Origin: a virus
Reading direction: 5' to 3' (one strand)
Length of the DNA: 54,714 bases
Virus record (IMG/VR): IMGVR_UViG_3300030329_002091
Span: 1 to 54,714 of that record
Made by a program: the position numbers and the translations under genes. The notes under the pieces are model-generated. The model saw nothing but the letters and a program-made list of their open reading frames with translations, did not search any database and was not told where the DNA came from. Shown one piece after another: positions 26,201 to 54,714 of this stretch; position 1 is the stretch's first letter, and the number at the start of each line of letters is the position of its first letter.

Positions 26201-29200
26201 TCCAAGTTTAAACTGTTCTATGGAGTTTAGTGTTTCTAAATTAGAAAATGGAATTGACTTCCAAGAGGCAGAGGCATTTAGTTTAGTTAATACCGATCAA
26301 AATGATTTTTGGCAAGCTTTAAAATCAGTTGGAACTATGTTTAGATGGCAAAACGATCCAGATGGAGTTATATATGTAGTGGAAAGTGCACAAGACTCTG
26401 GAGATCCAGGCCCTCCTAATAGCGGTACTAATGGCAATGGAATACTAAACTTTAGTAGTAGTAACTGTTCTGGTAACACTAAAGGTGAGCAAGATGACAA
26501 CAAAACAAGAAGACTTTATCTAAACTTTAGAACACACGTAAAAGGATGGAGAAAAGATTCGCAAAATACCAACGTTAGTCTACAAGAAACTTATATTTCC
26601 GATCCAGCTTTAAAAGCCTCGGTGGGAACAAATATTGGACAATTGCCTCATTGGCAAGGAGGACCAGTTCCACCTAGTCTTTTTAGGCCAATTGATAATT
26701 TTAGTGACGCATCTAATATAGCATTAGCCGCGGCTGGAACTCCAGTTTCTATAGGACACTCAACTGGATCAAAGAGTACAACTTTAACTGAAATACCAAA
26801 AGAAATAACAGAAACTAGTAGAGCTGCATATACAAATAAAATAGAAATATTAGATGTCTTTTATGAAGACGAAAACTCATATCAAAGCGAGAACCCTGCT
26901 ATATGGGAAACAGAACCAAAGGAAGATGTAGGATTAGATATATACTACGAAGCTAGTCAAGCTTATCCAATGCAAATAAATTCTAAGACAAACGAAATGT
27001 ACGCGCCTATAGGAAGTGTGATAACTTGCGAAGATACTAGTATAGAAATAACACCTGGGACAACATTACAATCGTGGAACGATAACGAAATTATAATATC
27101 TAACCCACATTCTACCACGTTTGACGCTTCTACAAAGCAAGGTGGTATTGAAATTATGACTGGTTTAGCAAATGGAACTGTTTTAACTTTCTCTGTAATA
27201 GACCAACAAGGTAATCTCGTTAGCGCTACTAGAGCTGTAGTTGGATCATGTTTATTGTTGAATAAGATTCAACTACAAAGAGACGTTAGTAAGCAAAGAC
27301 AAACGTTACCATGGTTTAATTGTTATTCATTTGGTAATGGAGTTGAATCAGATAGAATAAGAGATGACTTCAACACACCAACAATAGATAATGGCCCTAA
27401 AGCGTCTACTACTTTAGCTAAACATTATGAAGAAGAAAGAAGAGGTAATGGTTTAATATATTCTGGTATATACAACTCTACTAGCGGTGTAAACAATCTT
27501 AATCAGTTTATAATGGCTGAAAAAATAACAAAAGATTTAAATCCTAGATTTGGTACTATACAAAAGTTACACTCTAGAGATACTGATATTATTGCTTTGT
27601 GTGAGGATAAGGTGTTAAAAATATTAGCAAATAAAGACGCTGTATTTAACGCTGATGGAGATCCACAATTAGTGGCGACGGATAGAGTTTTAGGACAAGT
27701 AGTTCCTTATACTGGTGAATATGGTATATCTAAAAATCCAGAATCATTTGCTTTCCAAGCATACAGATCTTATTTCTCTGATAAAGCTAGAGGAGTCGTA
27801 TTGAGATTGTCTAGAGATGGTTTAACACCTATATCATCTCATGGTATGAAAGATTGGTTTGCTGATAATTTAAAAACCGCTAAAAATATTATAGGTAGTT
27901 ATGATGATAAAAAAGAACTGTATAATATTACTTTAGCAGATACATCTATAGTTATAAGCAGAGATGATGTTCCAAATTCACCTATAGAATGGACAGACGT
28001 GAATGCATTGGGAGATTGGAGAATGGGAGACACCGCTAGCGCTGGTAAATGGGTACAACACGGAGATAACAATACAAATCTTTTAACTGGAAATTCAAGT
28101 TTACCAAATGTCACTAATATAATACTAGCAACAACAGATGCTTTTCCGACGGATCAAACATCTAATTTTACAGATTTAATATCTGCTTTTAATACACATG
28201 GAGCTAGTAATGTCTTATTACATTATCAAGTTCTTCACGGTGGATTAGGATCTCAATCACCAACGTTAAACGCTGGTAATAATGCCCCTATAATAACATT
28301 TGAAATTTTAGCAATTAATTCCACAACTCATAATGGGTTCCCAACATACACGTTTACCGTATCTTACGATTCTGGTGATTGGTCCCAACAAGATATAACT
28401 CATTTTTGGTGGAGTTTAAAAAGTGTTGATGGAAATATATTACCAAAAGGAGGAGATAAAAGTATTAAAGATTATACTGTAAGTTTTTCTGATAAAGTAA
28501 ATGGATGGGTAAGTTTTAAATCATTTATTCAAGAAAATGGATTAAGTTTAAATAATAAATATTACACATTTAAAGCTGGTAAACTATACGAGCATAGAAG
28601 AGATAATACAGTAAATAACTTTTATGGCACACAATATAATTCTTCTATAAATGTTTTATTGAATGGATCTCCGAATACTGTTAAGAGTTTAAATACGATA
28701 AATTATTCTGGAAGTCAAGCTAAAATCACACAGAATTTATTAACAGGGGTTAACGCGGATGGTTATAATCAGTTTGACGGAGAATATTTTAATAATTATT
28801 CTGCTCTTGGATGGTATGTTGATTCTATAGAGTCAGACTTACAGTCTGGAGCGAAATTAGAATTTAAAGAAAAAGAAGGTAAATGGTTTACATTTATAAA
28901 AGGAGTTAAAACATATTTTAACGATGACAAAGATACTAATTTAGATATGACTGAATTTTCTGTTCAAGGAATAGGTTATTCTGGAACGGTAATATGTCCT
29001 GACTGTGGAACTGGAGAACCTGAAGAACCTGGTTACGCGTGTGGAGATAAAATTATAATGACAAGCGATGGAGATAATATAGTATATGGAGTCACGGGTA
29101 ACATAACACAGTTAAACGATTTGTTAAACTGGTTTAATCAAGATTCTATTTATAGAACTTATAATTTCCAAGATTACGTATTTGAACTTCAACAAACACC

Positions 29201-29528
29201 TCCTGCTATAGTAGCCCCTTGTCTTACTGGTAATGGAGACAATAGATGGGAATATATAGTAGACGTTAAAATAACTATACCTACGAACACCAATGGTCAC
29301 CCAGCCGGATTACATACATTCAACAAGTATATTGATATAATAGCGTTTATAGAGCCTATTTTAGGTTCTTCAGTTACTTCTTGGGATGAAATAGCTCAAG
29401 GCCTTCATAATCTTTATAGTTACGAGGCTTATACTAGTATTCAACACGCACCTTGTGAATGCGACCCTATAGACCCAACACCTTCGGATTACACGTTAAC
29501 AGTATTAGACGATCCTTCGGATCATTAA
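23202..29528 (+). CDS. Very large tail structural protein (2108 aa)
   Basis: The start contains GRMNKDLDERLVPNGEYRDA and VSTSEGSDVG, a motif typical of large tail proteins that follow the adaptor gene in marine phages. The rest is almost all beta-strand with many aromatic and Gly residues, and no signal peptide. A Cys-rich patch (CPDCG around residue 1932, then CGD) and a C-terminal CECDP lie near the end. In short-tailed phages this position holds the tubular or nozzle protein, but at 2108 aa it is much longer than T7 gp12 (about 800), suggesting fused extra domains. Exact role inferred. Confidence 0.65.
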   Translation: MPELNQNFIKGRMNKDLDERLVPNGEYRDALNIEVSTSEGSDVGSAQTTGSNVKLPTLSVLDTNGGPYTCVGSIANEKTNKIYWFVSGSDRDAIVEFDSDTEQETLVFVDIYKTTVSLLSDGHTGTNPYDHLHIPDNGNSTENITNIRVGMNVTGTFTYPSGHSLSGQSYNITLNENFTVDDMQLDAPSGWRVYLSKPSPSQQFPSSAGDTLTFISKRVLNFDDEKYITGINIIDDLLFWTDNRYEPKKINIPRSIEGTTSIDQHTKLKVRDNDNQLISHNYNLHKGREYVEVEHITVVKKSPLIPPKLEMDTTAVSRGSINGTWTTNFTQGTGDELINDPVNTMYTGVSLPSGPDFREGDIIILTNTQPNNPLSFTKHEVRLEVRAINNGLFDLMLIAITTSPLQEADQTWWFLLEQEKPMFEFKFPRFAYRWRFKDGEYSSFSPFSEIAFLPSTFDYYPKKGYNLGMTNNVRFLKIKDFVAERDMLPTDVISIDILYKESNSNNIYTVKTIMYGDSEWEAGATSNKLLKGETVIESEMIYATVPSNQLLRPWDNVPRKALGQEITGNRLVYANYLHQYNIKDGEFGKVIPIKLIPTLSTDPPEPKVPKKSIKSLRTYQLGVVYRDAYGRETPVLASSEEDNNITSGTIVTKKGLADNYNRLEVRCANNKPYWAESYKFFIKETSNEYYNLAMDRWYNAEDGNVWISFPSAERNKIDEDTYLILKKQHDNDTFVADEGRYKVIAIENEAPKFIKSSLRSFGSVPMTWVSGGEPIENYTQIYADTTKFEAGGFGDAVGLSDLRLRIKNSANSSAWYEVSGISQSTTNNYYLISLAKKFNEDIAWCDPDGDGTVITGLELEIAQAVYTDKPEFDGRFFVKIYKDIALVNNILTIAMTAPTFAIKMAKHHYYLNSASGRDMEWWEEGWNRTDFFIDGERRGFVGAGYQNTVIGCVDPLQGYLSNITGNIPTGGVLNSAYYAGHAGPYTSDHGAGISGFHSGHPSLNCSMEFSVSKLENGIDFQEAEAFSLVNTDQNDFWQALKSVGTMFRWQNDPDGVIYVVESAQDSGDPGPPNSGTNGNGILNFSSSNCSGNTKGEQDDNKTRRLYLNFRTHVKGWRKDSQNTNVSLQETYISDPALKASVGTNIGQLPHWQGGPVPPSLFRPIDNFSDASNIALAAAGTPVSIGHSTGSKSTTLTEIPKEITETSRAAYTNKIEILDVFYEDENSYQSENPAIWETEPKEDVGLDIYYEASQAYPMQINSKTNEMYAPIGSVITCEDTSIEITPGTTLQSWNDNEIIISNPHSTTFDASTKQGGIEIMTGLANGTVLTFSVIDQQGNLVSATRAVVGSCLLLNKIQLQRDVSKQRQTLPWFNCYSFGNGVESDRIRDDFNTPTIDNGPKASTTLAKHYEEERRGNGLIYSGIYNSTSGVNNLNQFIMAEKITKDLNPRFGTIQKLHSRDTDIIALCEDKVLKILANKDAVFNADGDPQLVATDRVLGQVVPYTGEYGISKNPESFAFQAYRSYFSDKARGVVLRLSRDGLTPISSHGMKDWFADNLKTAKNIIGSYDDKKELYNITLADTSIVISRDDVPNSPIEWTDVNALGDWRMGDTASAGKWVQHGDNNTNLLTGNSSLPNVTNIILATTDAFPTDQTSNFTDLISAFNTHGASNVLLHYQVLHGGLGSQSPTLNAGNNAPIITFEILAINSTTHNGFPTYTFTVSYDSGDWSQQDITHFWWSLKSVDGNILPKGGDKSIKDYTVSFSDKVNGWVSFKSFIQENGLSLNNKYYTFKAGKLYEHRRDNTVNNFYGTQYNSSINVLLNGSPNTVKSLNTINYSGSQAKITQNLLTGVNADGYNQFDGEYFNNYSALGWYVDSIESDLQSGAKLEFKEKEGKWFTFIKGVKTYFNDDKDTNLDMTEFSVQGIGYSGTVICPDCGTGEPEEPGYACGDKIIMTSDGDNIVYGVTGNITQLNDLLNWFNQDSIYRTYNFQDYVFELQQTPPAIVAPCLTGNGDNRWEYIVDVKITIPTNTNGHPAGLHTFNKYIDIIAFIEPILGSSVTSWDEIAQGLHNLYSYEAYTSIQHAPCECDPIDPTPSDYTLTVLDDPSDH

Positions 29529-32373: not shown

Positions 32374-32838
32374 ATGGATAAAAATATAACTCTTAGTAAA
32401 AGAAAAGAAATACAAGAACTACAAGATTTATTAATAGAAAACGCTGACGGAGTAAATATAGAGGGAGATGGTAAATCTATAGTTCATAGTAGTAATTTTC
32501 CTTTAAAACACACATTTGCAGATGGTATATACGTTAGACAAATGGATATGAAAGCTGGATCAATGGTAGTTGGAGCTATACACAACCATTTACATGTTTG
32601 GTTTTTATTAACTGGCAAATTGAATATCGCAACAGAAAAATCAATAGAAGAGTTTATCGCGCCATGTTATGTTTTAGCAGAGCCAGGTAGTAAAAGAGTT
32701 ATATACGCGGTAGAAGATTCTATATTTGTAAACGTACATAAGAACCCAAAAAACGTAAAAGATATAGATAAATTAGAACTAGAAATAGTTTCTAAAACAT
32801 TTAAAGAATATGAAGAATATACTAATAAAAATAAATAA
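32374..32838 (+). CDS. Cupin-fold protein in the virion gene block (154 aa)
   Basis: The first cupin motif is visible in VGAIHNHLHVWFLLTGKL with His70, His72 and His74, and the second in PGSKRVIYAVEDSIFVNVH with a further His. These could bind a metal. Cupins range from enzymes to sugar-binding or structural proteins. Here, between tail and ejection genes, a structural or host-interaction role is as likely as catalysis. Confidence 0.65.
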   Translation: MDKNITLSKRKEIQELQDLLIENADGVNIEGDGKSIVHSSNFPLKHTFADGIYVRQMDMKAGSMVVGAIHNHLHVWFLLTGKLNIATEKSIEEFIAPCYVLAEPGSKRVIYAVEDSIFVNVHKNPKNVKDIDKLELEIVSKTFKEYEEYTNKNK

Positions 32839-32841
32839 GAT

Positions 32842-33456
32842 ATGAGTTTTATGGTAGCAGGTATAGTCGCCGGAGCTGGTGGACTAACAAAAATAATATT
32901 AGCAAATCAAGGTAGAAAAGCTAGAATAGAAGAACAAAGACAAGCTAATCAAGAGTTGGCTAAACGTAAGGTTGATATAGAGGGTATAGACACAAGTAAC
33001 CCATATGCTAACTTAGATAATGCCTATGAAGATTTAACAGTTAATAAACAACAAGCCGAGTTTCAAAACCAAAAGAATCAACAAAACATGGCTAATATGA
33101 TGCAAAATATGGGAGGCGCTGCTGGTGGAAGTGGTATAGCTGGATTGGCTCAAGTAATGGCTAATCAACAAACACAAGCAACCCAAGCTGCTTCAGCCTC
33201 TATAGGTCAACAAGAGGCTGCTAATCAAAAATTACAAGCTAGAGCACAGCAAGAAATAGAGATGAAAGAAGGATATGGAAAAAGTATATCACAACAAAGA
33301 GAAGCGCAAAAAAGAAAATTATTAATGGGTCTGTCTCAACAAAGAAAAATTGGTGCTGACGCAGCTAGACAAACAGCTAGAGATCAAATGGCTTCTGGAA
33401 TCGGTGATATGGTTGGAGGCATTACTAGCGCTGCCACAGGCATGCCTATGGGATAA
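32842..33456 (+). CDS. Ejection/internal virion protein-like (gp14-type) protein (204 aa)
   Basis: A hydrophobic Gly/Ala-rich start (MSFMVAGIVAGAGGLTKII) suggests a membrane-inserting helix. It is followed by a long Gln/Ala/Asn/Lys-rich coiled coil (about residues 25-190) and a Gly/Met-rich end. This layout resembles T7 gp14-like internal proteins that are ejected and form a channel in the outer membrane. Sequence identity to gp14 cannot be tested here. It lies upstream of two larger proteins, which parallels the gp14-15-16 order. Confidence 0.55.
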   Translation: MSFMVAGIVAGAGGLTKIILANQGRKARIEEQRQANQELAKRKVDIEGIDTSNPYANLDNAYEDLTVNKQQAEFQNQKNQQNMANMMQNMGGAAGGSGIAGLAQVMANQQTQATQAASASIGQQEAANQKLQARAQQEIEMKEGYGKSISQQREAQKRKLLMGLSQQRKIGADAARQTARDQMASGIGDMVGGITSAATGMPMG

Positions 33457-33471
33457 TAAACAAATAAGTAT

Positions 33472-34971
33472 ATGAAAAAGAAAAAAACACCTTTACAACT
33501 TAACGAAGGCTTAATAAAAAGAGCTAGATTAACTAATCAATATAGCGGTGGCGATATGTCTACACGTGGTACTTGGGATGTTGACGCTATGTTTGATCCC
33601 GTAAAAGAAGTAATGGCTCAAAGAATGTTAAAAACAGAAGAGGATAATAAAAAAATAAAAGAAGAGATAAATAATCCAAATAAAAATAATAAAAAAAATA
33701 AGAAGGATAATATCGAAGATATTATAAACAGAGGAGAAAACGAAGCAAAGAAAGAAGAAAAAGTTATACCGCCTGAACCAACAAAATATTTAACTGTAGA
33801 GTGTGATGATAGTACGGATGATGAATGTTGGATGGGGATGAAAGAGATTTTAACAGAAGAGTGGATAAAATGGAACAACGAGTATGGGGATCCAAGCGCT
33901 ATAAAACAGTTAAAAAGTCCTTTTAAAAAATATTCAGCATTAAAAACAAATATAAGAGAGAATTATATACCAGGACAAAATAGTCCTTTTCAACAAACAG
34001 TTGGTATGGGGCCAAAGGGAAGAGATAATGTTGGTCTTACGGGGGATACAACTTACGGCCGTGCGGAAGACGAAAGATATGATATATGGAAAACTTTTAT
34101 AGATTTACCAGAAAAAGAACTTCAAAAAAGAATAGGAAACGCTATAGCAAATGATGTATCTAATAACGAAGAATATGGAGTTATTTTAAAACCAATAGAA
34201 AAATTACCTAATAAACAATGGAGAGAATCTATAACAGAGTACATGGGATTTGTTAAAGAAAATATGATAAACTCAATTAAAGACGGTCAATTAGAGTATA
34301 AAGACGCTTGGATGAGTAATGCTCAAAGCGCTATAACTAACGTTCAGAAGTTTATTAACAAAAGAACAGATTGGATGCAGCAAATGGGAGGAGATCAAAC
34401 TTTAACAAATAAAGGTGGTTCTACTATGTCTGCCGCTAGTCATAAAGGTGATAAACGCCAATGGGATTTAACTTATTTAGGAGATAAAAATATTCAAATG
34501 GATTTGTCAGAGGAAGGTGGTATATATTTTAAACTTGAAGGTGTTGACGATATCTGGTCTGTTGATGATTTAGACGCAAACACTTACAACAAAGATTATA
34601 GAGGTTTACAAATATGGAACGAGTTAAAGAAAAAACTAAAAGAATCAGCCTCTGAAGGAATTGAGTTTAACGAGCCAGCGGTAGAAAGCGTTATTGATGG
34701 TATACTACAATCAGATGAAGCTGTTGGATCTTGGGCTCATGATAATTTAGATGGAGAAAGTTTTTTTGATAGATATTATAAGGCTGCTCCAGAAGAATTC
34801 GATATAAATCCTTTTATGCCAGAACACTCTGATTACAATGTAGAATTAATAAGAGATATGGTGAAAAACGGGATGATTAATATGGCTAAACAAACATTCG
34901 CTACATACGCTCCTAAAGTCGCAAAAACAGCTTTAACAGTTAAACAATTAATAGATAAATATAGAAAATGA
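33472..34971 (+). CDS. Ejection-region protein with RGTWDVD motif (499 aa)
   Basis: Starts Lys-rich (MKKKKTPLQLNEGLIK) with a PLQ element recalling PxKQ, then STRGTWDVDAMF (33565-33591), matching YRGTWDVDTMM of the 7136 protein. Further on are KSPFKKYSALK and NSPFQQ, again PxK/PxQ-like. The remainder is charged and helical. It is followed by the giant protein with a 4-bp ATGA overlap. A virion ejection protein is likely by position; the shared motif suggests that the 534-9982 cluster encodes virion-associated proteins. Confidence 0.6.
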   Translation: MKKKKTPLQLNEGLIKRARLTNQYSGGDMSTRGTWDVDAMFDPVKEVMAQRMLKTEEDNKKIKEEINNPNKNNKKNKKDNIEDIINRGENEAKKEEKVIPPEPTKYLTVECDDSTDDECWMGMKEILTEEWIKWNNEYGDPSAIKQLKSPFKKYSALKTNIRENYIPGQNSPFQQTVGMGPKGRDNVGLTGDTTYGRAEDERYDIWKTFIDLPEKELQKRIGNAIANDVSNNEEYGVILKPIEKLPNKQWRESITEYMGFVKENMINSIKDGQLEYKDAWMSNAQSAITNVQKFINKRTDWMQQMGGDQTLTNKGGSTMSAASHKGDKRQWDLTYLGDKNIQMDLSEEGGIYFKLEGVDDIWSVDDLDANTYNKDYRGLQIWNELKKKLKESASEGIEFNEPAVESVIDGILQSDEAVGSWAHDNLDGESFFDRYYKAAPEEFDINPFMPEHSDYNVELIRDMVKNGMINMAKQTFATYAPKVAKTALTVKQLIDKYRK

Positions 34972-37900
34972 TTCAAGAGCAAGAATTAGAAAGTATTATA
35001 GAAGGTATGTTAGCAGATGGTTACTCAGAAGATTCTCCTGAGATACAATCTGTTATACAGCAATTTGATAGTGAAAAGAAGATTGAGGACGCTCAAGAAC
35101 AATCTAATAAATTAAAAAAAGAATATAATTTTAGCGAAAATATTCCTTTAGAAGATAAAAAACCAACTGAAGATCAAGAAGATCAAGAAGTTATTAGCGA
35201 CGAAAGTGTTACTACGGAAACAGACAACGAAGATAAAGTTAAAATGTCTGCTGATATACTTCCAGACGTTAATATTAGAGCAGTTGATAAAACTATTACT
35301 ACAGATTCTCCTGATATTGATTTTATTAATGATGATGAAATTGAAGAAAAAGAAGTAAAAGCAGAATTAGCAGAAGAAGATCAGAATTTTGATGACATTA
35401 TTGTTGATCTTGATTTTGATGAAATAGAAAAAGAAGAGAATACTGAAGTTCAAAAAGAGGCTATACAGTATAATCCTGAAATGAATATTAAACTTTTAGA
35501 CAAAGAAGAAAAAGAAGAGTTTAAAGTAGCAGAAAACAAAAAAAATTCAACAACTCAATTTCTAAATGGAGAATACAATCAAGAAGAGTATGTAAATAGT
35601 AAACTAGGTGATGATTTTGATGTTACTCTATTTAAACGTAATATTGGAGATGGTTGGGTAGTATATTCTAATTTATCTGTGGCAACCTTAGATCCTATGA
35701 GTTGGAGAGAAGAAAAAGTAGCACCAGATCCTTTAGTTAGAACAAATAAAAACCCAGATGACGCGTGGGAACACGCTTATCAATTAGGACAATATTGGAG
35801 CTTCACATCTGAAGATTCTGCTGATGCTTTTATAAATAGCAAAACAGATGTTTGGGATTTAGTTCAAAACAACGAAATATTCAACATGAAAGATGCTCAG
35901 AATATTTTAAAAGGAAAAATTACTAGTCCAGATAAAATACTTAAATACAAGTCTCCATCAGGGCCTAATTTAGAACTATCATTGTTTCATGGGGCACGTT
36001 TAACTCCTAATGAATTTAAGTATTATAAACTTGATTTTGATTCTGAAGCTGGGTTTAATGAAAAAAGAAATAAAGTTATAGATTATACTAAAAAAACATT
36101 AAGCTTTGAAAAGAAAAGTAAGAATATTAAAAAGTACCCTGAAACATTTAAAGATTTAAGCGATACTTCTATTAAACACTTATTAGACGGTATAGCTTTT
36201 GTAAAGCAATCAATTAATGGTATTGTCGGGACTAATGAAAACAAAACAATTTTTACATTATTAAATAGTGATTTATATAATAATGAAATTCAAGTTTTAA
36301 AAGACCTAATTGAAAAAGCTATAGATAATCCAACGGCAGAAAACATCGATAACATGAAGACGCAGCTTGATCGTACGGCCAATGGGGAAGACTGGGCTGA
36401 TATACATTGGTACATGAACATGGTCAATGTAGATGTTAGTAACATGAGAAAAACTACTTTTAGTACTTCTGATACAAAAGATTGGATTGGTAGTGAGTTT
36501 ATGAAATATTCTGACAAGGTGTCAATGGATTTTTATACGGTAGATAATCAATTTCTTTTTCCTGGGTGGAAAGATAATAAAAAGGCTAGAGAATCAGCTA
36601 AAGGACTTAAAGATTTTTCATCGTATATTTATGCTCATACTAATAAAAAATTTAAAACTCCAATATCTAATGATAATTGGGAAAGAATAAAAAAGAACGC
36701 TGGAAAGGGTAATATATTTCTAACTAGCAAAGAATTAAGTTACGCAGATCTTTGGAATAGTCCCACTAATAATCTCGCATGGTTAATTGGACAATCTGGT
36801 TGGGGTGTTAATGTTACTTTTATAATAAATGAAGAAGCGTATAATAATTTTGTAAATAGAGAAGGACATTATTGGTATATATTAGAAGGTGGGTATAGAT
36901 ACGGAGACCCTGAAAGTTTTGCGTTCCAACCTATTGGGTTAGAGGCTATATTAAGCATTTTATCATATGGACTTAATAGAGAGTATGTTATATACGAGGA
37001 TTACGCAAATAGATACAACAAATATCAAGAGCAAATCTCAAAAGAAAATTTATATTCTATTATAGGTGAAAGTGGAAAAAGAGTAGCTGTTAATGGTCAA
37101 AAAGTTTTAAACGAGATTGAAGAGCTTTCTAATTTTTTAGGAACTAAAGATAATCCAAATGCTATTACGGAAGAAATTAAGAAAAATATAGAAACAAAAA
37201 CCAAGCAATTAGTAAATCTTTCGGAAAATAATAATATAAAAAGCGCTCATAGTGAGTATGTAAGTAAGTTATTAGAAATATCTTTTAAGTATAACTTAGA
37301 ATTAGAAAGATATAAAAACACGCCTTTATTGAATGATGACGGAAGTGTTATGAGGTTTGATAATGGAAACCCTGTTTTTCCTAAAGACGTAGAATATGGG
37401 GAAAATTTAATATTAGCAAAAGAAAAAGAATTAGAGGCACTTGCTAATGCTGAGTCAAAAATTGCTTATGTTGAGTTTCAAGAACATCCAGATGTTAAAA
37501 ATAGCGCAGAACTGTTTAATTATTTAACAAGCGAAGAAGTTACAACATTTATAGACACTTATGATTTAGCCGTTAGAAGATATAATTCTATAGTTAATTG
37601 TAGAAGTTTTCAAGAAGATTTAGAAGATTTAAAACAACTTGGAAAAGCTACTAGCGCTCAATATAGTATAGTAGAAGCTATAAGATTACAATACATAAAA
37701 GAACTTGATGTTTTAGAAAATTTCAACGAACAACAAGCTTTAGCTTGGGACCGTATTGCTCAATTTTCACCTTTAGGGGCTGATATTACAAAAGGAATAT
37801 TTGATGGTGTTTTTAATAGGTTTTTAGGAAGTGCGAACGAAATGGTTTCAGGTGTTTTTGGGTTGTTTGATGAATTAGATCCTCAAGATTATATAAGTGT

Positions 37901-40900
37901 AGAAGAGCAATATGCCTTTGAGTATAATCAAAAATATGGTTGGTTAGACGTGTTTGATTCATATGCCCCATTTATTAGTAGCCCGAAAACACTGTACGAG
38001 ACAAGAACTAGATCAGGTGATAATATAACCACTGATGATGATGATGGTTGGACTGGTGAAGACGGGAGAAAATATTGGACTAGATTCGATAAGGATATGA
38101 ACATAATAGGTCATTACTATGTGGGACCTGATGGTAGATTTAGAGACGTTACAACAGAAGAGGCTAGAGTTTTAAATTTAGATAATCAAGCAACTAAAAT
38201 TCTTGAAAAAGGAGAAATGGAAATTGATTATCAAAATTGGTCTTTAAGAATGTCAACTCAAAATAGTGTTGCCGAAGCCATTAAAATGTTTGGTGTTGCT
38301 AGAATTATGGGTGGACTTGGAACATTTACAAGTGTTAGAATACCTATTTACGGTAAAACTGGTTTAAATATCGCGCCTTCACTTTCATTATGGTATGGTG
38401 TAGAACAATATAGAGATTCTTTTCATCAGTATAAAATGGCTAATCCTTTAGCTACAGACGACCAAGCAAACGAATATGCTTTTTGGAGTGGTATAATTAC
38501 AGGTGTAGCCGCTTCTATTAGTCCAGAATCAGTTTGGTTGATTAAAGGAACAGGAATACCGGCTGTAATGACAAAAGAGCTTCAGAAACTAATGAAAAAA
38601 GGTAAGTTAACAAGGCTTGATGTGTCGCAGTTGATTTTTAGACATATTGGTACTAGAGTCACGTTTGAAGTGGTTCAAGAAATGACAGATTATGTTTTTC
38701 AACAAGTAAACAACTCTGTGCATGATGATATTAATCTAGCTCTTATACAAACTGGTGATTTAAATAGTATGACCAGTTCAAATCAATTTAACGAAGCATG
38801 TGAGATTATAGTACAAACTGCTTATTCTACTACGCTTACCGCTGGTCTTGGAGGTATAAATTCTTTCACTAAACTTGGCACAAACGATAACTTTACTAGA
38901 GCATTATTATATCAATTAAAAAACGGTAGAGTTGATGAGATGTACAAGTGGGTTGATAAGTGGCAAAAAAGTAATAAAATAGATGCTGAGAATGCTCAAG
39001 AGCTTAGAAGGTTGATAAAGTCGGCTAATGATTGGTTTACAAACGTAAATAAAGAAGAGTTTAACAAGAAAACAGAGTACGAACAAATGTTAGCAGCTCA
39101 ACTTTATATTCAAAAAAGAATAATTGATTTAGACATTAAAAAAGAAGGTCTTACAGAAGATCTTAAAAAAGCAAAAGAAGCTAATGATAAAAATATAAAA
39201 AACTTAGAAAGCGGTAAAATACATCTTGCTATGGTACCTAGTATACCGTTTCTTAAAGGACAACAGACAGTAGTTAAGAATATGGACTTTGGTAGTGTTA
39301 GAGGTCTTAATGGTAAAAAATTAGTTGAATTAAAAGATAAAATAGCTTTAATAGAAGCCTTAAAAAAGAGAAAACGAGACGGTGGAAGACTTACAAAAAA
39401 TCAACAAGATATTTTAAATATATATGAAGCTAATATAAAGAAAGTAAAAACAGCCGTTGATCAGAAATTACAAATAGAAGTAGATAGTTATTTAAAAGAT
39501 AAAAATATAACTAACCCTTCTGAAAGAGACAGAAATTTAGCTTTAGCAGAAATACTTAGAAGAAAATTTCATCTAAACGCGATGGATCAAAAAGACAACC
39601 AAAGAAAAGTAGATCATATAAACCAAGTAAAAGAATTAACAGAAGAAGAAAGACAGGAGTGGGAAAACAATCCTATTGTTGATATTACATGGGATCTTAT
39701 AAACACTGAAGATGGTATAGCGTTATTACAAAGTTTATGCAAAACAAGAAACCAAAGAGAAATGCTTTTAAACGCTGTTAGAATAATACAAACAGCCAAA
39801 AGCAACGGTATAGACTTAAATATAAAATTTCATTTTACAGATGCTTCGTACAGAAAAGTACCAGGCACGCATAGAACCAATGGTATAAAAGTAAGTAAAA
39901 AAGGAGAAAATCCTTTAATACATATTAGAGCAAATGGAAAACACGCAAGTCAAGTAGCGATTTCCAGCGACGTATTACACGAAGGTTTTCACGTGTTTTT
40001 AGATTTATTAGAAGCGAAACCTGACGGAAAGGAGTTTGTGAAAAAACTAAGAAGCATAATGTTTGACCATATTAAAAAAGACGAAAGTCTTTCGTTTATA
40101 TTGCGTTTTGCGGACCAATATAGAAATGATTTTGTGGAAAAATATCCTAGAAAACCAGATCAATCAGAAGCGGAATACAATGCCTTTATAGATGATAAGT
40201 TAGCTGACGAAGCTCTTGTAGAGTTTTTAGCAAGAGCAACTTCAGATCACGCAGGAGATGAATCGGTTGACATAAGTGATTTGCAAAAATCTAAAATTAT
40301 ACTTAGTATGAAGAAGTTTTGGAACTATATGGTTCCAGCTTCTAAATGGTCTTTCGATTTAGGTGAAATAGATTTTGACGAAGCGATGTCTTATGCTAAT
40401 CATTTGATTAATGGAGTTAGAAAAGGAAAAGTTGATTTAGAATTAACTGGAGAAGAAGAAGTAGAAGGAGTAGTAAAATCATATCAAAGAAAAGGAAATC
40501 AAATTAACAAATTAGCTGCTGACGATTTTTATGGTAATCTTTTAGAAATACAAGGTTTGTTTGAAGAGGTTATTATAGACATCGCCTCGAGAGATAGAGT
40601 AAGTGAAAAAGGGAATCTTTATAGAATACAGGATTTAGAAGGATATAATGAAGATGCTTTTATGGCAGCAATGTTAAATATTGTAGATGATTATACCTGG
40701 GGTAAATCTGCTTTTGATATAGAAAAAACTTATACTACTGATGAAAATGGTAATCCTGATTTGTTTGCTTATGTTAATACTATATTAAACAAACGTGTGG
40801 CTTACGAAACCGATAAGATGTTAAAACAAGCTCCTGATACTAAGCCTTTTGATCCAACTGTTGGATTGCCTCCATTAGAAGGAACAGTACCAGAAGTAAC

Positions 40901-43900
40901 AGTTACACCAGAAGACGCTGTAGATAATAATGATAATTTAAATTTAGAAGAAGAAAATTTAAATACAACGCCTATAGAAGATAATATTAAAGTTGAAGAA
41001 GAAACTACTTTAGTTGATGTAGAGCAAGAAGGTGAAACAACTACAGAAGAAGTTAGAACAGAAAAAGGTCTTGATCAAACAGTTAAAGATCCTTCTGGAA
41101 ATGATATTACCTATAAGCAAAGAGCTATTAATATTATTAGATCTATATTAGCGACTAAGCTACCGGACTTTACAATTACTGGAACTAAAAATGATAGATC
41201 AACCCCGTTTTTACGTGAACTTCAAAGAGAGTTAGGTAAAGATTTACAATTTGAAACTCAACAATTAATGGGTAAAACAGTTGAAGAATTTACTGTATTT
41301 TTAAATGAAAATAAAGAGTTATTAATATCACAACTACCTGTTACTTATTTAGCTAAAAACATACCAGAGGTAATAGAGAAATTAGTTATACAAGAAGATG
41401 GTACTAAAGTATGGACAACAGATTGGAAGGGTAGAAAAAGAGGTGCTAAACCAGGCAATATTGATTTTTGGAAATCGGAAGATGGTATTGCTTGGAAAGG
41501 TATTACATCTGGCCCTCAAAAAATAAGAGTAAAGAAAGATATAGATTACGATAAAATTGATTTAACAAAAATATTTATACCTGGTGGAAAACAAAAACAA
41601 TCCAAAAAAGAAGGTTTAGCTTTAGCTCTTGGAAAACAAATAGGATTAGAAATTTTTACTAAGCAAATAAGTATAGGTAAACACTTAAACGATAAAATCG
41701 AAGAACTTACATATCTAAAAAATAAAAAACAACTTCAAAACGGTAAACAAACATACGTATTAAGCGAACAAGAAAGAAACGAGTTACAAAGACAAATAGA
41801 CGTACATAAAGAAGCAATAAAAGAAAAGGCTCCAATTTTTGATACTTTTAAAGAAGTTGAAGGTTTACAAAATAGAATTTTACAAGGAAACTTTGTTAAT
41901 GTATTACGAAGAGACATTGAGTCAGGTAATGTTAAACAAAAGAAAATTAGAAGTTTAGATCCTGTACAGTTTGATGGTTTATGGGAAGAGCTTCCAAATA
42001 TTGGTATTCAAATAGCTAAAACAAATAGACGTAATCCTAATAATATTTATAGAATAATAGAAAAGAGTTTAAAAGATAAAGGAGTTTTTTCAGATAAAGA
42101 TATTAAAGAGATTTCTGACGAAATGTTTAATATAGTAAGCATGTATCAAGATTTTACTGAAGAAGGTAAAGACATGTTGAGCTTAGACAACTTTATTAAG
42201 TTTGAAGTGGAAGATAGAAATTTATCTATAGTAATGTCAGAACAATTAGGTCTAATTGATTTAAATGGAAAAACAATTAAATTATCTAATGAGTTTGATA
42301 ATATAGATAACTTAACAGTACAAAGAAGTATACCGTTAGATTTTGCTAGAGATATGATAGAGCAGCAAGGTATGAGTAAACTAGAAGTTGTTACTATGTT
42401 GTTAAAGTACTTTAAGGCTCATTACGCAGGTGCTAGTAAAATAAGTAGAGGTAACTTTGATATAATAGGTGGTTTATTAACGCCTATTATAGATTTTGTT
42501 AAAGGAACGCAAAGATATCAAGCATGTAAGAATGTGAAAGATTATGTTAATAACATAGTAAATGAAATTGATGGTGTCGAAGTTAAAGTTAGCGCTACAG
42601 GAAGAATAACTTCAGTTAAAATAGACGGTGAAAATGTGCCTTTAAGCGTGTTTTCTAGTTTCCCTCAAACTAAGAAAAACCTAAGAAAAAAAGGAACTGA
42701 AGCAAGTAAGGCTGATGCTTTAGGAGCTCAAGACGCGTTAAAGCTATTATTGACTTATGTAAAAGGACAAATAGACGCAGGTTATCTTACTAATAAAGAT
42801 TGGGCGTTGTTGATGATGAGCTTAAAAAGTAACATGAACACTGTGTTAAGAAGATCTGCTATTTATAAGTTTGATCACAATGGAACGTTAAATTCTGATG
42901 ATGTTTTAGAGCACTCTCTTCCAGCAGATAAATTAGTACATATATTAACTGATTTTTATTTAAACCCAGAAACTGAAATAACTGAAGATATGATGGAAGG
43001 GTTATGGGAAAATTATACATCAGCTATAATAACTAAAGAGATGGATAACGTGTTAAAAAACGCTGGTTTTCAAAAATCTATGCCTCCTGGGTGGAAAATA
43101 GGAGATCCTATACATTTACGTTATTACAACCCTGCTACTATAATGCAAGATGGTTTACATTCTATAGTAGATTTAGAATCTGGAGAGGTTATAGGTGAAA
43201 AATACTCTCAAGTTTCAAACATTGGAAATACTCTTAAAGATTCTGAAAATATTAAATTAAAAAACGAAGGTATAAAAAAATCTAGACAAAGAAACCATGA
43301 TTCTAAAGGTATAGCTGTTTTTGATTTAGATGACACTCTTATTAAAAGTAATTCTAAAGTTATAATAAAATACGCAGACGGAAGAATTGTAAAGTTAACA
43401 CCATCTCAATTTGCAGAACAAGGAACAAAATTAAGAGATTTAGAAGAAAATGGAGAGTTAGAATTAGATTATTCAGAGTTTTCTCAGCTTATAGATGTTG
43501 TAGAATCAGAATACATGGCAGATTTAGAGAAAAAATATGGTAAGTATGGAGGTCAAGATATATGGATATTAACAGCAAGACCACACTCTGCGTTTGAAGC
43601 TATATATGAGTACATGAAAGAAAAGGGATTAAAAATAAATATAGTCACACTTCAAGACGGTACAGAACAAGCTAAATTAAACTTTTTCATAGAAAGATAT
43701 GCTGAAGGTTATAATGATTTTTACTTTGCGGATGATCATATAGGCAACGTGGAAATTGTAAAAGAATTTTTAGAGCAATTTGATGTTAAATCTGATATAA
43801 TACAAGCAGAGATAAAAGCTAGTAAAAATATAGATACTAGGTTTAATATTATTTTAGAAGAAAAAACAAATATAAACGCAGAAGAAGTAGTATCAGACGC

Positions 43901-46142
43901 TGAGGCGGTATTAAACGCCGCAAGAGGAAGATGGAGTTTATTTCCTCCTTCTGCTTATGATTTTAAAGATTTTATATATTCTTTCTTGCCAAAAGGAGAA
44001 AAAGGAGAACAAGCAATGAAGTTTTTTGAAGAAACTTTAATAAATCCATATAATAAAGGTGTTCAAGATTTAAATAAAGCTAATATACAATTAAGAAAAA
44101 ATTACAAAGAGTTAATAAAAAATCTACCTGAAATTAATAGGAGTTTACGTGAAAAAATTGGTGAGAGTTATTTTACTTATGACCATGCTATTAGAGTTTA
44201 TTTATGGGTGGAAGTTATGGGAATATCTAAATCAAAAATACCTGGAGTTGATGTTAGTGAAATAGATTTTTTAATCGCAACTGTAAAAAGAGATACAGAT
44301 TTACAAGCTTTTGCCGACGCATTAAGTATAATGTCTCAACAAGTTGATGGTTATGTTAAACCAGGAGAAAATTGGATAGTTGAAAATATAGCTTCAGATA
44401 TATTTAAAATAAGTAGAGAAGGTAATAGAAAAATTCATTTAGCTAAATTTTTAGAAAATAAAGATATAATATTTTCTAAGAAAAACTTAAACAAACTTGA
44501 GAAAGCTTATGGCAAGAAATTTGTTGAAGCTTTAAAAGATATGTTAAGTAGAATGGAATCTGGTCAAAATAGAAAAATGAATCAATCCAGAATAGAAAAA
44601 GCTTGGGATAATTGGATGAACAATTCCGTGGGTGCTATTATGTTTTTTAATATGAGATCTGCTGTTTTACAAACTATATCTTCGTTGAACTACATGAACT
44701 GGAATAATAATAATCCTTTAAAGGCAGCTAAAGCTTTTGCTAACCAACCTCAATATTGGGCTGATTGGTCTTTTTTATTCAATTCTAATTATGTTCAAAA
44801 TAGATTAGAAGCTATGGGGTTTGATCTTCAAGCTGAAGAAATACAAAGAGCAATAGAAGGCAAACAAAATAAAGCTAAAGCGCTTTTAGAATATCTTTTA
44901 AAATTAGGATTTACACCAACTAGAATAGCAGATGCTTTTGCTATTTGTACTGGGGGAGCAGCGTATTATAGAAATCAAATTAATTTTTATTTAACTCAGA
45001 TAGATCCAGATACAGATGAGCTATATACAAAGGAAAAAGCAGAGGAATTAGCTTATTTAGATTTTGTTGCTACGTCTGAAGAATCCCAACAGTCAGCTGA
45101 TCCTTCTAAAATATCTCAACAACAAGCGTCAGGTTTAGGTCGTATTTTACTTTCGTTCAAAAATACACCTATGCAATATATGCGTATAATAAGAAGAAGT
45201 ATAATAGATTTATATTCTGCTAGAGGTGATGTAAAAACTAATTTAGGTAAAATTATATATTATGGAGGTGTGCAAACTTTTCTTTTTACAACTTTACAAC
45301 AAGCAGTTTGGGCCGCTTATGGAGACGAAGAAGAATGGGATGAATCTAAAGATAAGGCTATACAAGGTATGATAGACAACCTTTTAAATGGTCTTGGTAT
45401 TGGTGGAACAATAACTATTACTGTTAAAAACGGTTACTTGGAATATATTGATCAAAAAGGAAGGGAATGGGGCGCTGATCATACTTACACTATATTAGAG
45501 TTTGCTAATTTATCACCTACATTAGGTAGTAAATTAAGAAAATTATATTCTTCTATAAAAACAGAACAGTTAAATGCAGATGTAATAGCAGAAATGGGTC
45601 TTACTATAGAAAACCCAGCTTTTGATGCTCTTGCTAATTTAATATCCGCTTTTACAAACGTGCCTAGTGATAGAATAGTTAGAAAAATAAACAATATAAT
45701 ATTAGCTTCTAGTGATGAGGCTGAGGTTTGGCAAAAAGTCGCGTTATTATTAGGTTGGAGTGCTTGGGATGTTGGTTTAGATACAAAAGCTAAAAAACTA
45801 CAAAAAGAAATTAAAGAAGAAAAAGCAAAAGAAAAAGAAAAACAATCTGAAAAAATAAAACAAAAAAGAATTCAAGATCTTTTAAACGAAGAAGTTTTAC
45901 CTTTAGAAATAGAAGCAGAAAAAAAGGGAGATAAAGGACCTTGGTATTGTCCTCATGTAAAAAAGAGTGGTAGTAGATGTGGGGTTGAAGTTGATAAAGC
46001 CGGTCAGCTTTGTACTTACCATGAAAAGGTACCACAAAACGAAAGCGGTGAAAAAACACAATGTACTTTTATTAGAACCAAAGGAGGTAGATGTGGTAAT
46101 CAAACCTCTGCTAAAAGTGGATTGTGCCCTATACATGATTAA
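34968..46142 (+). CDS. Giant polyvalent virion-type protein with zincin, HAD and zinc-binding modules (3724 aa)
   Basis: A multidomain protein of the kind called phage polyvalent proteins, usually packaged and injected. Visible modules: an acidic N-terminal region (about residues 1-200); a gluzincin-like site DVLHEGFH (His1671, Glu1672, His1675) with DEALVEF (Glu1748, Glu1752) downstream; a HAD phosphatase with FDLDDTLI (Asp2786, Asp2788), WILTARPHS and FADDHIGN (Asp2922, Asp2923); a helical late region (about residues 3110-3350); and a C-terminal pair of Cys/His units from residue 3661, each Cys-x8-Cys then CxxH. It starts overlapping the 33472 gene. It may help DNA entry, process host or virion proteins, or remodel nucleotides or RNA ends. 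Substrates are unknown. No RNA-polymerase DxDGD signature was seen. Confidence 0.8.
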   Translation: MIQEQELESIIEGMLADGYSEDSPEIQSVIQQFDSEKKIEDAQEQSNKLKKEYNFSENIPLEDKKPTEDQEDQEVISDESVTTETDNEDKVKMSADILPDVNIRAVDKTITTDSPDIDFINDDEIEEKEVKAELAEEDQNFDDIIVDLDFDEIEKEENTEVQKEAIQYNPEMNIKLLDKEEKEEFKVAENKKNSTTQFLNGEYNQEEYVNSKLGDDFDVTLFKRNIGDGWVVYSNLSVATLDPMSWREEKVAPDPLVRTNKNPDDAWEHAYQLGQYWSFTSEDSADAFINSKTDVWDLVQNNEIFNMKDAQNILKGKITSPDKILKYKSPSGPNLELSLFHGARLTPNEFKYYKLDFDSEAGFNEKRNKVIDYTKKTLSFEKKSKNIKKYPETFKDLSDTSIKHLLDGIAFVKQSINGIVGTNENKTIFTLLNSDLYNNEIQVLKDLIEKAIDNPTAENIDNMKTQLDRTANGEDWADIHWYMNMVNVDVSNMRKTTFSTSDTKDWIGSEFMKYSDKVSMDFYTVDNQFLFPGWKDNKKARESAKGLKDFSSYIYAHTNKKFKTPISNDNWERIKKNAGKGNIFLTSKELSYADLWNSPTNNLAWLIGQSGWGVNVTFIINEEAYNNFVNREGHYWYILEGGYRYGDPESFAFQPIGLEAILSILSYGLNREYVIYEDYANRYNKYQEQISKENLYSIIGESGKRVAVNGQKVLNEIEELSNFLGTKDNPNAITEEIKKNIETKTKQLVNLSENNNIKSAHSEYVSKLLEISFKYNLELERYKNTPLLNDDGSVMRFDNGNPVFPKDVEYGENLILAKEKELEALANAESKIAYVEFQEHPDVKNSAELFNYLTSEEVTTFIDTYDLAVRRYNSIVNCRSFQEDLEDLKQLGKATSAQYSIVEAIRLQYIKELDVLENFNEQQALAWDRIAQFSPLGADITKGIFDGVFNRFLGSANEMVSGVFGLFDELDPQDYISVEEQYAFEYNQKYGWLDVFDSYAPFISSPKTLYETRTRSGDNITTDDDDGWTGEDGRKYWTRFDKDMNIIGHYYVGPDGRFRDVTTEEARVLNLDNQATKILEKGEMEIDYQNWSLRMSTQNSVAEAIKMFGVARIMGGLGTFTSVRIPIYGKTGLNIAPSLSLWYGVEQYRDSFHQYKMANPLATDDQANEYAFWSGIITGVAASISPESVWLIKGTGIPAVMTKELQKLMKKGKLTRLDVSQLIFRHIGTRVTFEVVQEMTDYVFQQVNNSVHDDINLALIQTGDLNSMTSSNQFNEACEIIVQTAYSTTLTAGLGGINSFTKLGTNDNFTRALLYQLKNGRVDEMYKWVDKWQKSNKIDAENAQELRRLIKSANDWFTNVNKEEFNKKTEYEQMLAAQLYIQKRIIDLDIKKEGLTEDLKKAKEANDKNIKNLESGKIHLAMVPSIPFLKGQQTVVKNMDFGSVRGLNGKKLVELKDKIALIEALKKRKRDGGRLTKNQQDILNIYEANIKKVKTAVDQKLQIEVDSYLKDKNITNPSERDRNLALAEILRRKFHLNAMDQKDNQRKVDHINQVKELTEEERQEWENNPIVDITWDLINTEDGIALLQSLCKTRNQREMLLNAVRIIQTAKSNGIDLNIKFHFTDASYRKVPGTHRTNGIKVSKKGENPLIHIRANGKHASQVAISSDVLHEGFHVFLDLLEAKPDGKEFVKKLRSIMFDHIKKDESLSFILRFADQYRNDFVEKYPRKPDQSEAEYNAFIDDKLADEALVEFLARATSDHAGDESVDISDLQKSKIILSMKKFWNYMVPASKWSFDLGEIDFDEAMSYANHLINGVRKGKVDLELTGEEEVEGVVKSYQRKGNQINKLAADDFYGNLLEIQGLFEEVIIDIASRDRVSEKGNLYRIQDLEGYNEDAFMAAMLNIVDDYTWGKSAFDIEKTYTTDENGNPDLFAYVNTILNKRVAYETDKMLKQAPDTKPFDPTVGLPPLEGTVPEVTVTPEDAVDNNDNLNLEEENLNTTPIEDNIKVEEETTLVDVEQEGETTTEEVRTEKGLDQTVKDPSGNDITYKQRAINIIRSILATKLPDFTITGTKNDRSTPFLRELQRELGKDLQFETQQLMGKTVEEFTVFLNENKELLISQLPVTYLAKNIPEVIEKLVIQEDGTKVWTTDWKGRKRGAKPGNIDFWKSEDGIAWKGITSGPQKIRVKKDIDYDKIDLTKIFIPGGKQKQSKKEGLALALGKQIGLEIFTKQISIGKHLNDKIEELTYLKNKKQLQNGKQTYVLSEQERNELQRQIDVHKEAIKEKAPIFDTFKEVEGLQNRILQGNFVNVLRRDIESGNVKQKKIRSLDPVQFDGLWEELPNIGIQIAKTNRRNPNNIYRIIEKSLKDKGVFSDKDIKEISDEMFNIVSMYQDFTEEGKDMLSLDNFIKFEVEDRNLSIVMSEQLGLIDLNGKTIKLSNEFDNIDNLTVQRSIPLDFARDMIEQQGMSKLEVVTMLLKYFKAHYAGASKISRGNFDIIGGLLTPIIDFVKGTQRYQACKNVKDYVNNIVNEIDGVEVKVSATGRITSVKIDGENVPLSVFSSFPQTKKNLRKKGTEASKADALGAQDALKLLLTYVKGQIDAGYLTNKDWALLMMSLKSNMNTVLRRSAIYKFDHNGTLNSDDVLEHSLPADKLVHILTDFYLNPETEITEDMMEGLWENYTSAIITKEMDNVLKNAGFQKSMPPGWKIGDPIHLRYYNPATIMQDGLHSIVDLESGEVIGEKYSQVSNIGNTLKDSENIKLKNEGIKKSRQRNHDSKGIAVFDLDDTLIKSNSKVIIKYADGRIVKLTPSQFAEQGTKLRDLEENGELELDYSEFSQLIDVVESEYMADLEKKYGKYGGQDIWILTARPHSAFEAIYEYMKEKGLKINIVTLQDGTEQAKLNFFIERYAEGYNDFYFADDHIGNVEIVKEFLEQFDVKSDIIQAEIKASKNIDTRFNIILEEKTNINAEEVVSDAEAVLNAARGRWSLFPPSAYDFKDFIYSFLPKGEKGEQAMKFFEETLINPYNKGVQDLNKANIQLRKNYKELIKNLPEINRSLREKIGESYFTYDHAIRVYLWVEVMGISKSKIPGVDVSEIDFLIATVKRDTDLQAFADALSIMSQQVDGYVKPGENWIVENIASDIFKISREGNRKIHLAKFLENKDIIFSKKNLNKLEKAYGKKFVEALKDMLSRMESGQNRKMNQSRIEKAWDNWMNNSVGAIMFFNMRSAVLQTISSLNYMNWNNNNPLKAAKAFANQPQYWADWSFLFNSNYVQNRLEAMGFDLQAEEIQRAIEGKQNKAKALLEYLLKLGFTPTRIADAFAICTGGAAYYRNQINFYLTQIDPDTDELYTKEKAEELAYLDFVATSEESQQSADPSKISQQQASGLGRILLSFKNTPMQYMRIIRRSIIDLYSARGDVKTNLGKIIYYGGVQTFLFTTLQQAVWAAYGDEEEWDESKDKAIQGMIDNLLNGLGIGGTITITVKNGYLEYIDQKGREWGADHTYTILEFANLSPTLGSKLRKLYSSIKTEQLNADVIAEMGLTIENPAFDALANLISAFTNVPSDRIVRKINNIILASSDEAEVWQKVALLLGWSAWDVGLDTKAKKLQKEIKEEKAKEKEKQSEKIKQKRIQDLLNEEVLPLEIEAEKKGDKGPWYCPHVKKSGSRCGVEVDKAGQLCTYHEKVPQNESGEKTQCTFIRTKGGRCGNQTSAKSGLCPIHD

Positions 46143-49811: not shown

Positions 49812-50021
49812 ATGAGAAGATTATTAATATTATTATTATTAATAACTTTAGTATCTTGTGTTGTGCCGCAGCATATTGAGCCTGATAAATGTTGTGATAA
49901 AAATACTTACTATGAACCTTATTATTCACCCACACGTGTAATCGTAGTAAATAAAAATAAACCAATATATAAAAAAAGGCATATAAAAGTTAAAATTAAT
50001 AAACATAGAAAAAGAAAATGA
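49812..50021 (+). CDS. Small lipoprotein, candidate outer spanin (69 aa)
   Basis: Signal peptide with lipobox LVSC (Cys16) predicts an outer- or inner-membrane lipoprotein. The mature part is short, with Tyr/Pro-rich sequence and a very basic Lys/Arg/His C-terminus (KKRHIKVKINKHRKRK). Small lipoproteins near lysis genes are often outer spanins. It begins directly after the previous stop and overlaps the next gene by 4 bp. Spanin function is inference. Confidence 0.6.
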   Translation: MRRLLILLLLITLVSCVVPQHIEPDKCCDKNTYYEPYYSPTRVIVVNKNKPIYKKRHIKVKINKHRKRK

Positions 50022-51483: not shown

Positions 51484-51486
51484 AAT

Positions 51487-51660
51487 ATGATAAATTGGAT
51501 TAACGGTTATGCTGCCGGAAACAAAAAGCAAAAATATGAAATAACTTTCAGATTAGGCACGTTTACAGTTTTAGAAATTAAAGCTTGTTTGTTCTGTGAA
51601 AAAGGATGTTCGTCTAAAAAATTTAGATTAATGGTGTTAAATTTAGGGTTTGAAATATAA
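51487..51660 (+). CDS. Small hypothetical protein with Cys pair (57 aa)
   Basis: ATG 51487 to TAA 51658-51660, coding MINWINGYAAGNKKQKYE and a strand-like FRLGTFTVLEIKACLFCEKG with Cys34, Cys37 and Cys41. The CxxC plus a third Cys might bind zinc, but a zinc site needs a fourth ligand. The stop overlaps the start of the M15 gene by one base. Function unknown. Confidence 0.5.
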   Translation: MINWINGYAAGNKKQKYEITFRLGTFTVLEIKACLFCEKGCSSKKFRLMVLNLGFEI

Positions 51661-54678: not shown

Positions 54679-54714
54679 ATATTCTATTTTAAAGTTATAC
54701 AAAAATCTACAAAC

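What the first reader, a model, noticed from the sequence alone, without database searches (positions are those of the whole stretch)
34968..46142. 3724-aa polyvalent protein combining zincin, HAD phosphatase and terminal zinc-binding repeats
One gene fills about a fifth of the window. Catalytic-type motifs are widely spaced: HExxH at 1671-1675, DLDDTLI at 2786-2792. Such proteins are thought to be injected with DNA. The combination of a peptidase and a phosphatase with a Cys/His end points to attack on host defence or host regulators soon after entry.
Basis: partly seen in the sequence, partly recalled or inferred. Interest (0 to 1): 0.66.

Follow-up and report, generated by a model that had tools for sequence, protein, structure and literature searches.

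The report
Giant phage entry protein, two enzymes
This is the largest protein of an uncultured marine phage, probably carried in the particle and pushed into the bacterium with the DNA; it has two intact-looking enzyme sites (a metallopeptidase and a phosphatase of the kind that trims nucleic-acid ends) that hundreds of related marine phages keep, while its front third is swapped or rewritten from phage to phage.

Summary
In detail: one intact 3724-aa ORF, HEGFH at 1671-1675, DLDDTL at 2786-2791, two Cys/His knuckles at the C-terminus. It belongs to a large family: the HAD-plus-C-terminal part is found in at least 553 IMG/VR contigs. In relatives the gluzincin site (HExxH plus a distal Glu) and all four HAD motifs are essentially invariant. 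It is the last gene of the structural block of a Flavobacteriia-type podovirus with a crassvirus-like muzzle, and the third gene of a small/medium/giant trio whose positional counterparts in Cellulophaga phage phi18:3 were seen by MS/MS in virions. A profile of residues ~1087-1390 matches that virion protein and those of phi38:1, Panino and elemo. The predicted zincin resembles anthrax lethal factor and the C1 domain of N4 virion RNAP. The HAD fold is closest to the T4 Pnkp 3'-phosphatase. The helical C-terminal domain resembles regions of other phage polyvalent proteins. The N-terminal third turns over between close relatives. Best reading: a virion-packaged, ejected polyvalent protein, a new variant of a known kind. 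Packaging and ejection are inferred, not shown.

The parts
34968..46142 (+). giant polyvalent / ejection protein, 3724 aa
   Evidence: homologues
34968..38207 (+). residues 1-1080: acidic N-terminus (31% D/E in 1-200) and a variable segment with no detectable relative
   Evidence: no matches; composition
38226..39137 (+). residues ~1087-1390: conserved domain shared with last-gene giants of phi38:1, phi18:3, Panino, elemoD
39687..40445 (+). residues ~1574-1826: zincin (gluzincin) domain, lethal-factor-like / N4 vRNAP C1-like fold
39978..39992 (+). HEGFH (1671-1675)
40209..40211 (+). Glu1748, invariant, presumed third zinc ligand
41115..43295 (+). residues ~2050-2776: moderately conserved region of unknown fold
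43296..43850 (+). residues 2777-2961: HAD phosphatase domain, Pnkp 3'-phosphatase-like
43323..43340 (+). HAD motif I DLDDTL (2786-2791)
43572..43580 (+). HAD motif II TAR (2869-2871)
43674..43676 (+). HAD motif III Lys2903
43731..43736 (+). HAD motif IV Asp-Asp (2922-2923)
43851..45887 (+). residues 2962-3640: best-conserved, all-helical C-terminal domain; similar folds in other phage polyvalent proteins
45948..46022 (+). Cys/His knuckle 1 (3661-3685)
46062..46136 (+). Cys/His knuckle 2 (3699-3723)
32842..33456 (+). 204-aa first gene of the trio: N-terminal hydrophobic helix, Gln/Ala-rich; homologue of phi38:1 gp099
33472..34971 (+). 499-aa second gene of the trio; positional counterpart of phi18:3 gp121
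   Evidence: weak sequence match
23202..29528 (+). 2108-aa tail muzzle homologue (crAss_MUZ_C domain), context marker

Best explanation
The gene encodes the largest ejection (cargo) protein of a short-tailed phage related to Pervagoviridae, Pachyviridae and Elemovirus, with a crassvirus-like muzzle. It is packed in the capsid, threaded out through the tail with two smaller partners (204 and 499 aa), and enters the cell ahead of or with the DNA. The middle domain (1087-1390) is the part shared with other virion giants of these phages and is presumably the packaging or membrane/channel part. The gluzincin that follows most likely cuts the polypeptide, freeing the variable N-terminal cassette from the constant C-terminal half. 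The C-terminal half carries a HAD phosphatase of the polynucleotide 3'-phosphatase type next to a conserved helical domain, and acts on nucleic-acid (or nucleotide) phosphate ends at the start of infection. Shown: architecture, conservation, synteny, domain folds (predicted), N-terminal turnover. Inferred: packaging in this phage, ejection, self-cleavage, HAD substrate.
For: Last gene of the structural block in the same order as phi38:1, elemoD, Panino and phi18:3; trio adjacency in 65 of 79 relatives; phi18:3 gp120/gp121/gp123 annotated from experimental MS/MS proteomics. A profile of residues ~1087-1390 built only from this family matches phi38:1 gp101 (98.5%, 3e-15), Panino (97.9%), phi18:3 gp123 (97.3%, 2e-11), elemoD gp72 (89.9%), against below 1% for unrelated controls. 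25 of 25 relatives tested carry the muzzle homologue. Zincin: H, E, H and E1748 invariant in 54 sequences, lethal-factor-like fold Z 7.2, N4 gp50 C1 Z 5.7, zincin profile matches elemoD gp72. HAD: four motifs conserved, best fold match T4 Pnkp phosphatase Z 13.1, phrog_415 'polynucleotide kinase' in 33 of 52 members. C-terminal helical fold similar to ART-PolyVal/LPD/MuF-C proteins. Cassette turnover. N4, crassvirus and P1 precedents: PMC12633501, PMC10172136, PMC5512222.
Against: No virion proteomics exists for this phage, and the phi18:3 giant lacks both the HExxH and the HAD, so virion presence is shown only for a relative of the middle domain. The T4 Pnkp residue R176 has no conserved counterpart. 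None of 19 records (window and 18 relatives) has the AAA_33 kinase and only one has a sub-cutoff RNA-ligase match, so a T4-style repair pathway was not found (records may be fragments). N4 vRNAP keeps its zincin uncut in the virion (PMC5512222), so self-cleavage is not a given. The zincin fold Z values are in the range the tool calls middling, though the top hits over this segment are lethal-factor-like proteins and the N4 zincin.
Confidence: 0.55

Rival explanations
1. One reading: an injected effector whose zincin cleaves host defence or regulatory proteins and whose HAD dephosphorylates host regulators.
For: Zincin fold of the lethal-factor type; rapid turnover of the N-terminal part, as in arms races; PMC5512222 lists host-protein cleavage as one possible role for such zincins.
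Against: HAD is closest to polynucleotide phosphatases, not protein phosphatases; no host target identified.
Confidence: 0.2
2. Maturation protein: the zincin acts in the producing cell, trimming this or other internal proteins before packaging, and the HAD is needed in assembly; the protein is mainly an internal scaffold or ejection-channel part.
For: Iyer et al. propose pre-packaging autoproteolysis for P1 DdrB (PMC5512222); the best-conserved part is the helical C-terminal domain, and the middle domain is shared by giants without HExxH or HAD.
Against: N4 vRNAP with the same kind of zincin is packaged unprocessed (PMC5512222); a polynucleotide-type phosphatase has no obvious assembly role.
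Confidence: 0.2
3. N4-type virion RNA polymerase that has diverged beyond recognition in its N-terminal half.
For: Same order: N-terminal part, then zincin, then large helical C-terminus; same position after two smaller ejection genes.
Against: The N4 RNAP domain finds none of 79 relatives nor the window by phmmer, and there is no profile match; no RNAP Pfam match in A1 or A5 members; the N-terminal segment is not conserved, unlike a polymerase.
Confidence: 0.03

Closest known systems
Polyvalent proteins of phages and conjugative elements (Iyer et al. 2017, PMC5512222)
   Same: Giant multidomain protein beside virion genes, zincin with HExxH plus a Glu in a later helix, helical domain with fold similarity to ART-PolyVal/LPD proteins.
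   Different: Carries a polynucleotide-type HAD phosphatase, which the 2017 main text does not describe ('phosphatase' absent); no match to the curated LPD models in Pfam.
N4 virion RNA polymerase gp50 (Schitoviridae)
   Same: About 3500 aa, last of three ejection-protein genes, lethal-factor-like zincin followed by a large helical C-terminus; fold match to C1 in 9pnt.
   Different: No RNA polymerase module found; N4 C2 does not match by profile; HAD added.
Last structural-block giants: phi18:3 gp123, phi38:1 gp101, Panino CDS0069, elemoD gp72
   Same: Same position and homologous middle domain; gp123 is MS/MS-verified; elemoD also has a matching zincin.
   Different: phi18:3, phi38:1 and Panino giants lack HExxH, and none of the four has the HAD motif; C-terminal half not matched by profile.
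Crassvirus cargo proteins gp45/gp46/gp47 (crAss001)
   Same: Similar gene order after the muzzle gene: protein with an N-terminal-region TM helix, medium protein, giant; weak profile match of the 204-aa gene to the gp45 TM segment.
   Different: No sequence match of the giant to gp47 or gp49.
T4 polynucleotide kinase/phosphatase (PseT), phosphatase domain
   Same: Best fold match of the HAD: Z 13.1, 125 residues, rmsd 2.5; motif I aligned.
   Different: No kinase domain; R176 equivalent not conserved; fused into a virion-type giant.

Membership tests
Polyvalent proteins (Iyer et al. 2017) | two or more unrelated activities in one polypeptide | tested here: met
   zincin and HAD, both with conserved catalytic residues; activities themselves not assayed
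Polyvalent proteins (Iyer et al. 2017) | zincin with HExxH helix and Glu in the following C-terminal helix | tested here: met
   invariant H/E/H and E1748 on predicted helices
Polyvalent proteins (Iyer et al. 2017) | phage type encoded beside late virion genes | tested here: met
   last gene of the structural block
Polyvalent proteins (Iyer et al. 2017) | presence of catalogued LPD or hub domains | tested here: inconclusive
   no Pfam LPD match; fold similarity to LPD/ART-PolyVal proteins in BFVD
Polyvalent proteins (Iyer et al. 2017) | carried in the virion and delivered on entry | not testable with these tools
   only a homologue of the middle domain is MS/MS-verified
N4-type virion RNA polymerase | single-subunit RNA polymerase module | tested here: not met
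   no phmmer or profile match of N4 998-2103 to the window or 79 relatives; a very divergent polymerase is not excluded
N4-type virion RNA polymerase | zincin C1 domain | tested here: met
   fold match to 9pnt 2127-2348, Z 5.7, 181 residues, rmsd 6.4; middling Z
Pnkp-type 3'-phosphatase (HAD) | HAD motifs I-IV | tested here: met
Pnkp-type 3'-phosphatase (HAD) | closest fold is the Pnkp phosphatase domain | tested here: met
   top five rows are T4 Pnkp and bacterial Pnkp1, Z 12.1-13.1
Pnkp-type 3'-phosphatase (HAD) | substrate-binding Arg after motif I (T4 R176, from memory) | tested here: not met
   aligned position is K2797 in the window and varies in the family; single-sequence alignment, low probability
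Pnkp-type 3'-phosphatase (HAD) | activity on 3'-phosphate ends | not testable with these tools
   needs an assay
Crassvirales | crass-fold muzzle protein | tested here: inconclusive
   PF25729 crAss_MUZ_C at 27.6 bits, cutoff 27, in window 23202-29528, but single-sequence profile comparison with crAss001 gp44 was weak
Crassvirales | crassvirus cargo/RNA polymerase proteins gp47/gp49/gp50 | tested here: inconclusive
   no profile match of the giant to gp47 or gp49; gp50 not compared; the record may be incomplete

The most novel reading that the evidence does not exclude
A polymorphic delivery protein built back to front: a constant C-terminal half (helical domain plus a nucleic-acid-end phosphatase that works on arrival) and a zincin that releases an exchangeable N-terminal effector cassette, used across a common group of marine Flavobacteriia phages. 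The phosphatase would make broken, 3'-phosphate-ended nucleic acids left by host nuclease defence repairable before any phage gene is expressed.
Probability: 0.25. Interest if true: 0.75.

Novelty: new variant of a known kind. Interest (0 to 1): 0.52.

Why it matters
It ties a common but mostly uncultured marine phage lineage to the ejection-protein machinery of N4 and crassviruses, and adds an apparently near-universal nucleic-acid-type phosphatase to the list of activities that phages may bring with them. It also offers natural pairs of related phages whose giants share the back half but not the front, so the role of the N-terminal cassette could be tested directly once a member is cultured.

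Tried and rejected
Direct search with the whole protein found nothing in viral contigs and its two halves found only one weak HAD-region hit in phage records, until the neighbouring 204-aa gene was used as bait. The N-terminal 2000 aa found no relative. Profiles of the C-terminal half and the HAD found no solved structure at E 1, and the zincin region only chance-level rows (best E 0.08). N4 C2 homology by profile: none. crAss001 gp47/gp49 homology: none. T4-style RNA repair partners in 19 records: no kinase, one sub-cutoff ligase. A first profile match of the middle domain to phi18:3 gp123 was partly circular because phi38:1 was in the alignment; it was rebuilt from the family alone and held. 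PADLOC and NCBIfam gave nothing useful. The HAD of one relative found no match in phage records by tblastn.

Full report
Observation. The window is an uncultured IMG/VR virus record of 54,714 bases. The reported gene is real: ATG at 34968, stop at 46142, 3724 aa without a stop. Shuffles of the protein contain HExxH in 2.7% and the HAD motif in 0.7% of cases, so the motifs needed support from relatives.

Relatives. The protein as a whole finds nothing directly. Using the 204-aa upstream gene as bait gave 16 viral contigs; 11 of the 17 records then searched hold homologues of the C-terminal half. A profile of the C-terminal part then matched at least 553 contigs, of which 80 were kept. From these, 79 reading frames were taken, most of them complete giants of 2146 to 3448 aa. 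HExxH in the expected place is present in 74 of 79. A HAD motif I is present in 77, and the other two have DFDET. In 54 aligned sequences the only invariant residues of the zincin region are H1671, E1672, H1675 and E1748. In 52-53 aligned sequences the HAD motif residues (D2786, D2788, T2790, TAR 2869-2871, K2903, D2922-D2923) are invariant or nearly so. Both sites are therefore under strong selection.

Phage. Neighbouring proteins match Flavobacteriia phages: phi38:1 (Pervagoviridae), Panino, elemo (Elemovirus), phi18:3 (Pachyviridae). A GroEL gene and phi38:1-type structural genes fit the 'group 2' putative Flavobacteriaceae phages of PMC5332604. The 2108-aa protein at 23202-29528 carries the crassvirus muzzle C-terminal domain just above its cutoff, and its homologue occurs in 25 of 25 relatives tested.

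Position. The giant is the last gene of the structural block and follows a 204-aa protein with an N-terminal hydrophobic helix and a 499-aa protein. The trio is adjacent in 65 of 79 relatives. N4 gp52/gp51/gp50 and crAss001 gp45/gp46/gp47 have a similar layout. In phi18:3 the counterparts gp120, gp121 and gp123 are annotated from experimental MS/MS proteomics; there one small gene lies between gp121 and gp123. A profile built only from this family, covering residues ~1087-1390, matches phi38:1 gp101 (98.5%), Panino (97.9%), phi18:3 gp123 (97.3%) and elemoD gp72 (89.9%), while unrelated controls stay below 1%. So a homologue of the middle domain is an experimentally detected virion protein. Presence of the window protein itself in virions is inferred.

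Domains. The predicted zincin segment (block pLDDT mostly 83-93 around the active-site helices) matches anthrax lethal factor and Certhrax (Z 6.5-7.2) and the C1 domain of N4 virion RNAP, 9pnt (Z 5.7). PMC5512222 described the N4 zincin as lethal-factor-like and places the third ligand Glu in the second C-terminal helix, as seen here. The HAD has T4 Pnkp and bacterial Pnkp1 as its five best fold matches (Z 12.1-13.1), and phrog_415, annotated 'polynucleotide kinase', matches 33 of 52 members. The T4 R176 position is not conserved, and no kinase and only one sub-cutoff RNA ligase was found in 19 records, some perhaps incomplete, so the substrate remains open. The model of the HAD plus helical C-terminal domain has fold matches over long stretches in other phage giants labelled ART-PolyVal, LPD or MuF-C. 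Eight of 79 relatives end in Cys/His knuckles like those of the window, five of them as a pair.

N-terminal turnover. Between relatives whose HAD-to-C-terminal part is 60-69% identical, 63% of pairs have no N-terminal BLAST match, and two pairs in the 80-89% bin also have none. L066 and L088 are 81% identical over the last 1026 residues and 49% over the zincin region, but share no detectable match before about residue 790. L045 and L068 are 80-81% identical in DNA on both sides, including the first ~83-95 residues, while roughly residues 84-590 do not align. In elemo phages most of the giant also differs between isolates. This is the reverse of the usual polymorphic toxin layout: the variable part is at the front, the constant part at the back. 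Exchange and very fast divergence are not told apart here.

Mechanism. Most likely the protein is packed with its two partners, threaded through the muzzle-type tail, and works on entry: a middle packaging or channel domain, a zincin that cuts the chain (self-processing favoured over host targets), and a phosphatase acting on nucleic-acid or nucleotide phosphate ends. N4 vRNAP is a close analogue in layout, but no polymerase module was found. Overall this is a new variant of the polyvalent/ejection protein kind. The combination with a polynucleotide-type HAD is not described in the 2017 survey main text, and one full-text search found no paper on it; jumbo-phage HADs of the polynucleotide-kinase type are reported in RNA-repair contexts (PMC7824862).

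Noticed in passing
window 23202-29528: 2108-aa protein with a crassvirus muzzle C-terminal domain (PF25729, just above cutoff), linking these marine podoviruses to crassviruses at the tail tip.
   Followed up: partly
L045 and L068, giant gene: Two contigs ~80% identical in DNA on both sides differ completely in about 500 codons inside the giant gene: a cassette exchange or very fast divergence.
   Followed up: partly
window 32374-32838: 154-aa protein with a cupin-like look lies between the muzzle region and the ejection trio; no Pfam match.
   Followed up: no
window 3818-5627: GroEL-type chaperonin gene (Pfam Cpn60) followed by an 85-aa ORF in the position of GroES.
   Followed up: no
window 51115-52154: SNase-like nuclease (51115-51483) and an M15 peptidase, a possible endolysin (51660-52154), downstream of the giant gene.
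   Followed up: no
window 52816-54714 (-): B12-dependent (class II) ribonucleotide reductase on the opposite strand at the end of the record.
   Followed up: no
window 50018-51115: 365-aa gene of unknown function downstream of the giant; a homologue sits directly after the giant gene in L014.
   Followed up: no
L003 18482-29755 (elemoD gp72): The elemoD giant shares only about its first 312 aa (55%) with most other elemo phages.
   Followed up: partly
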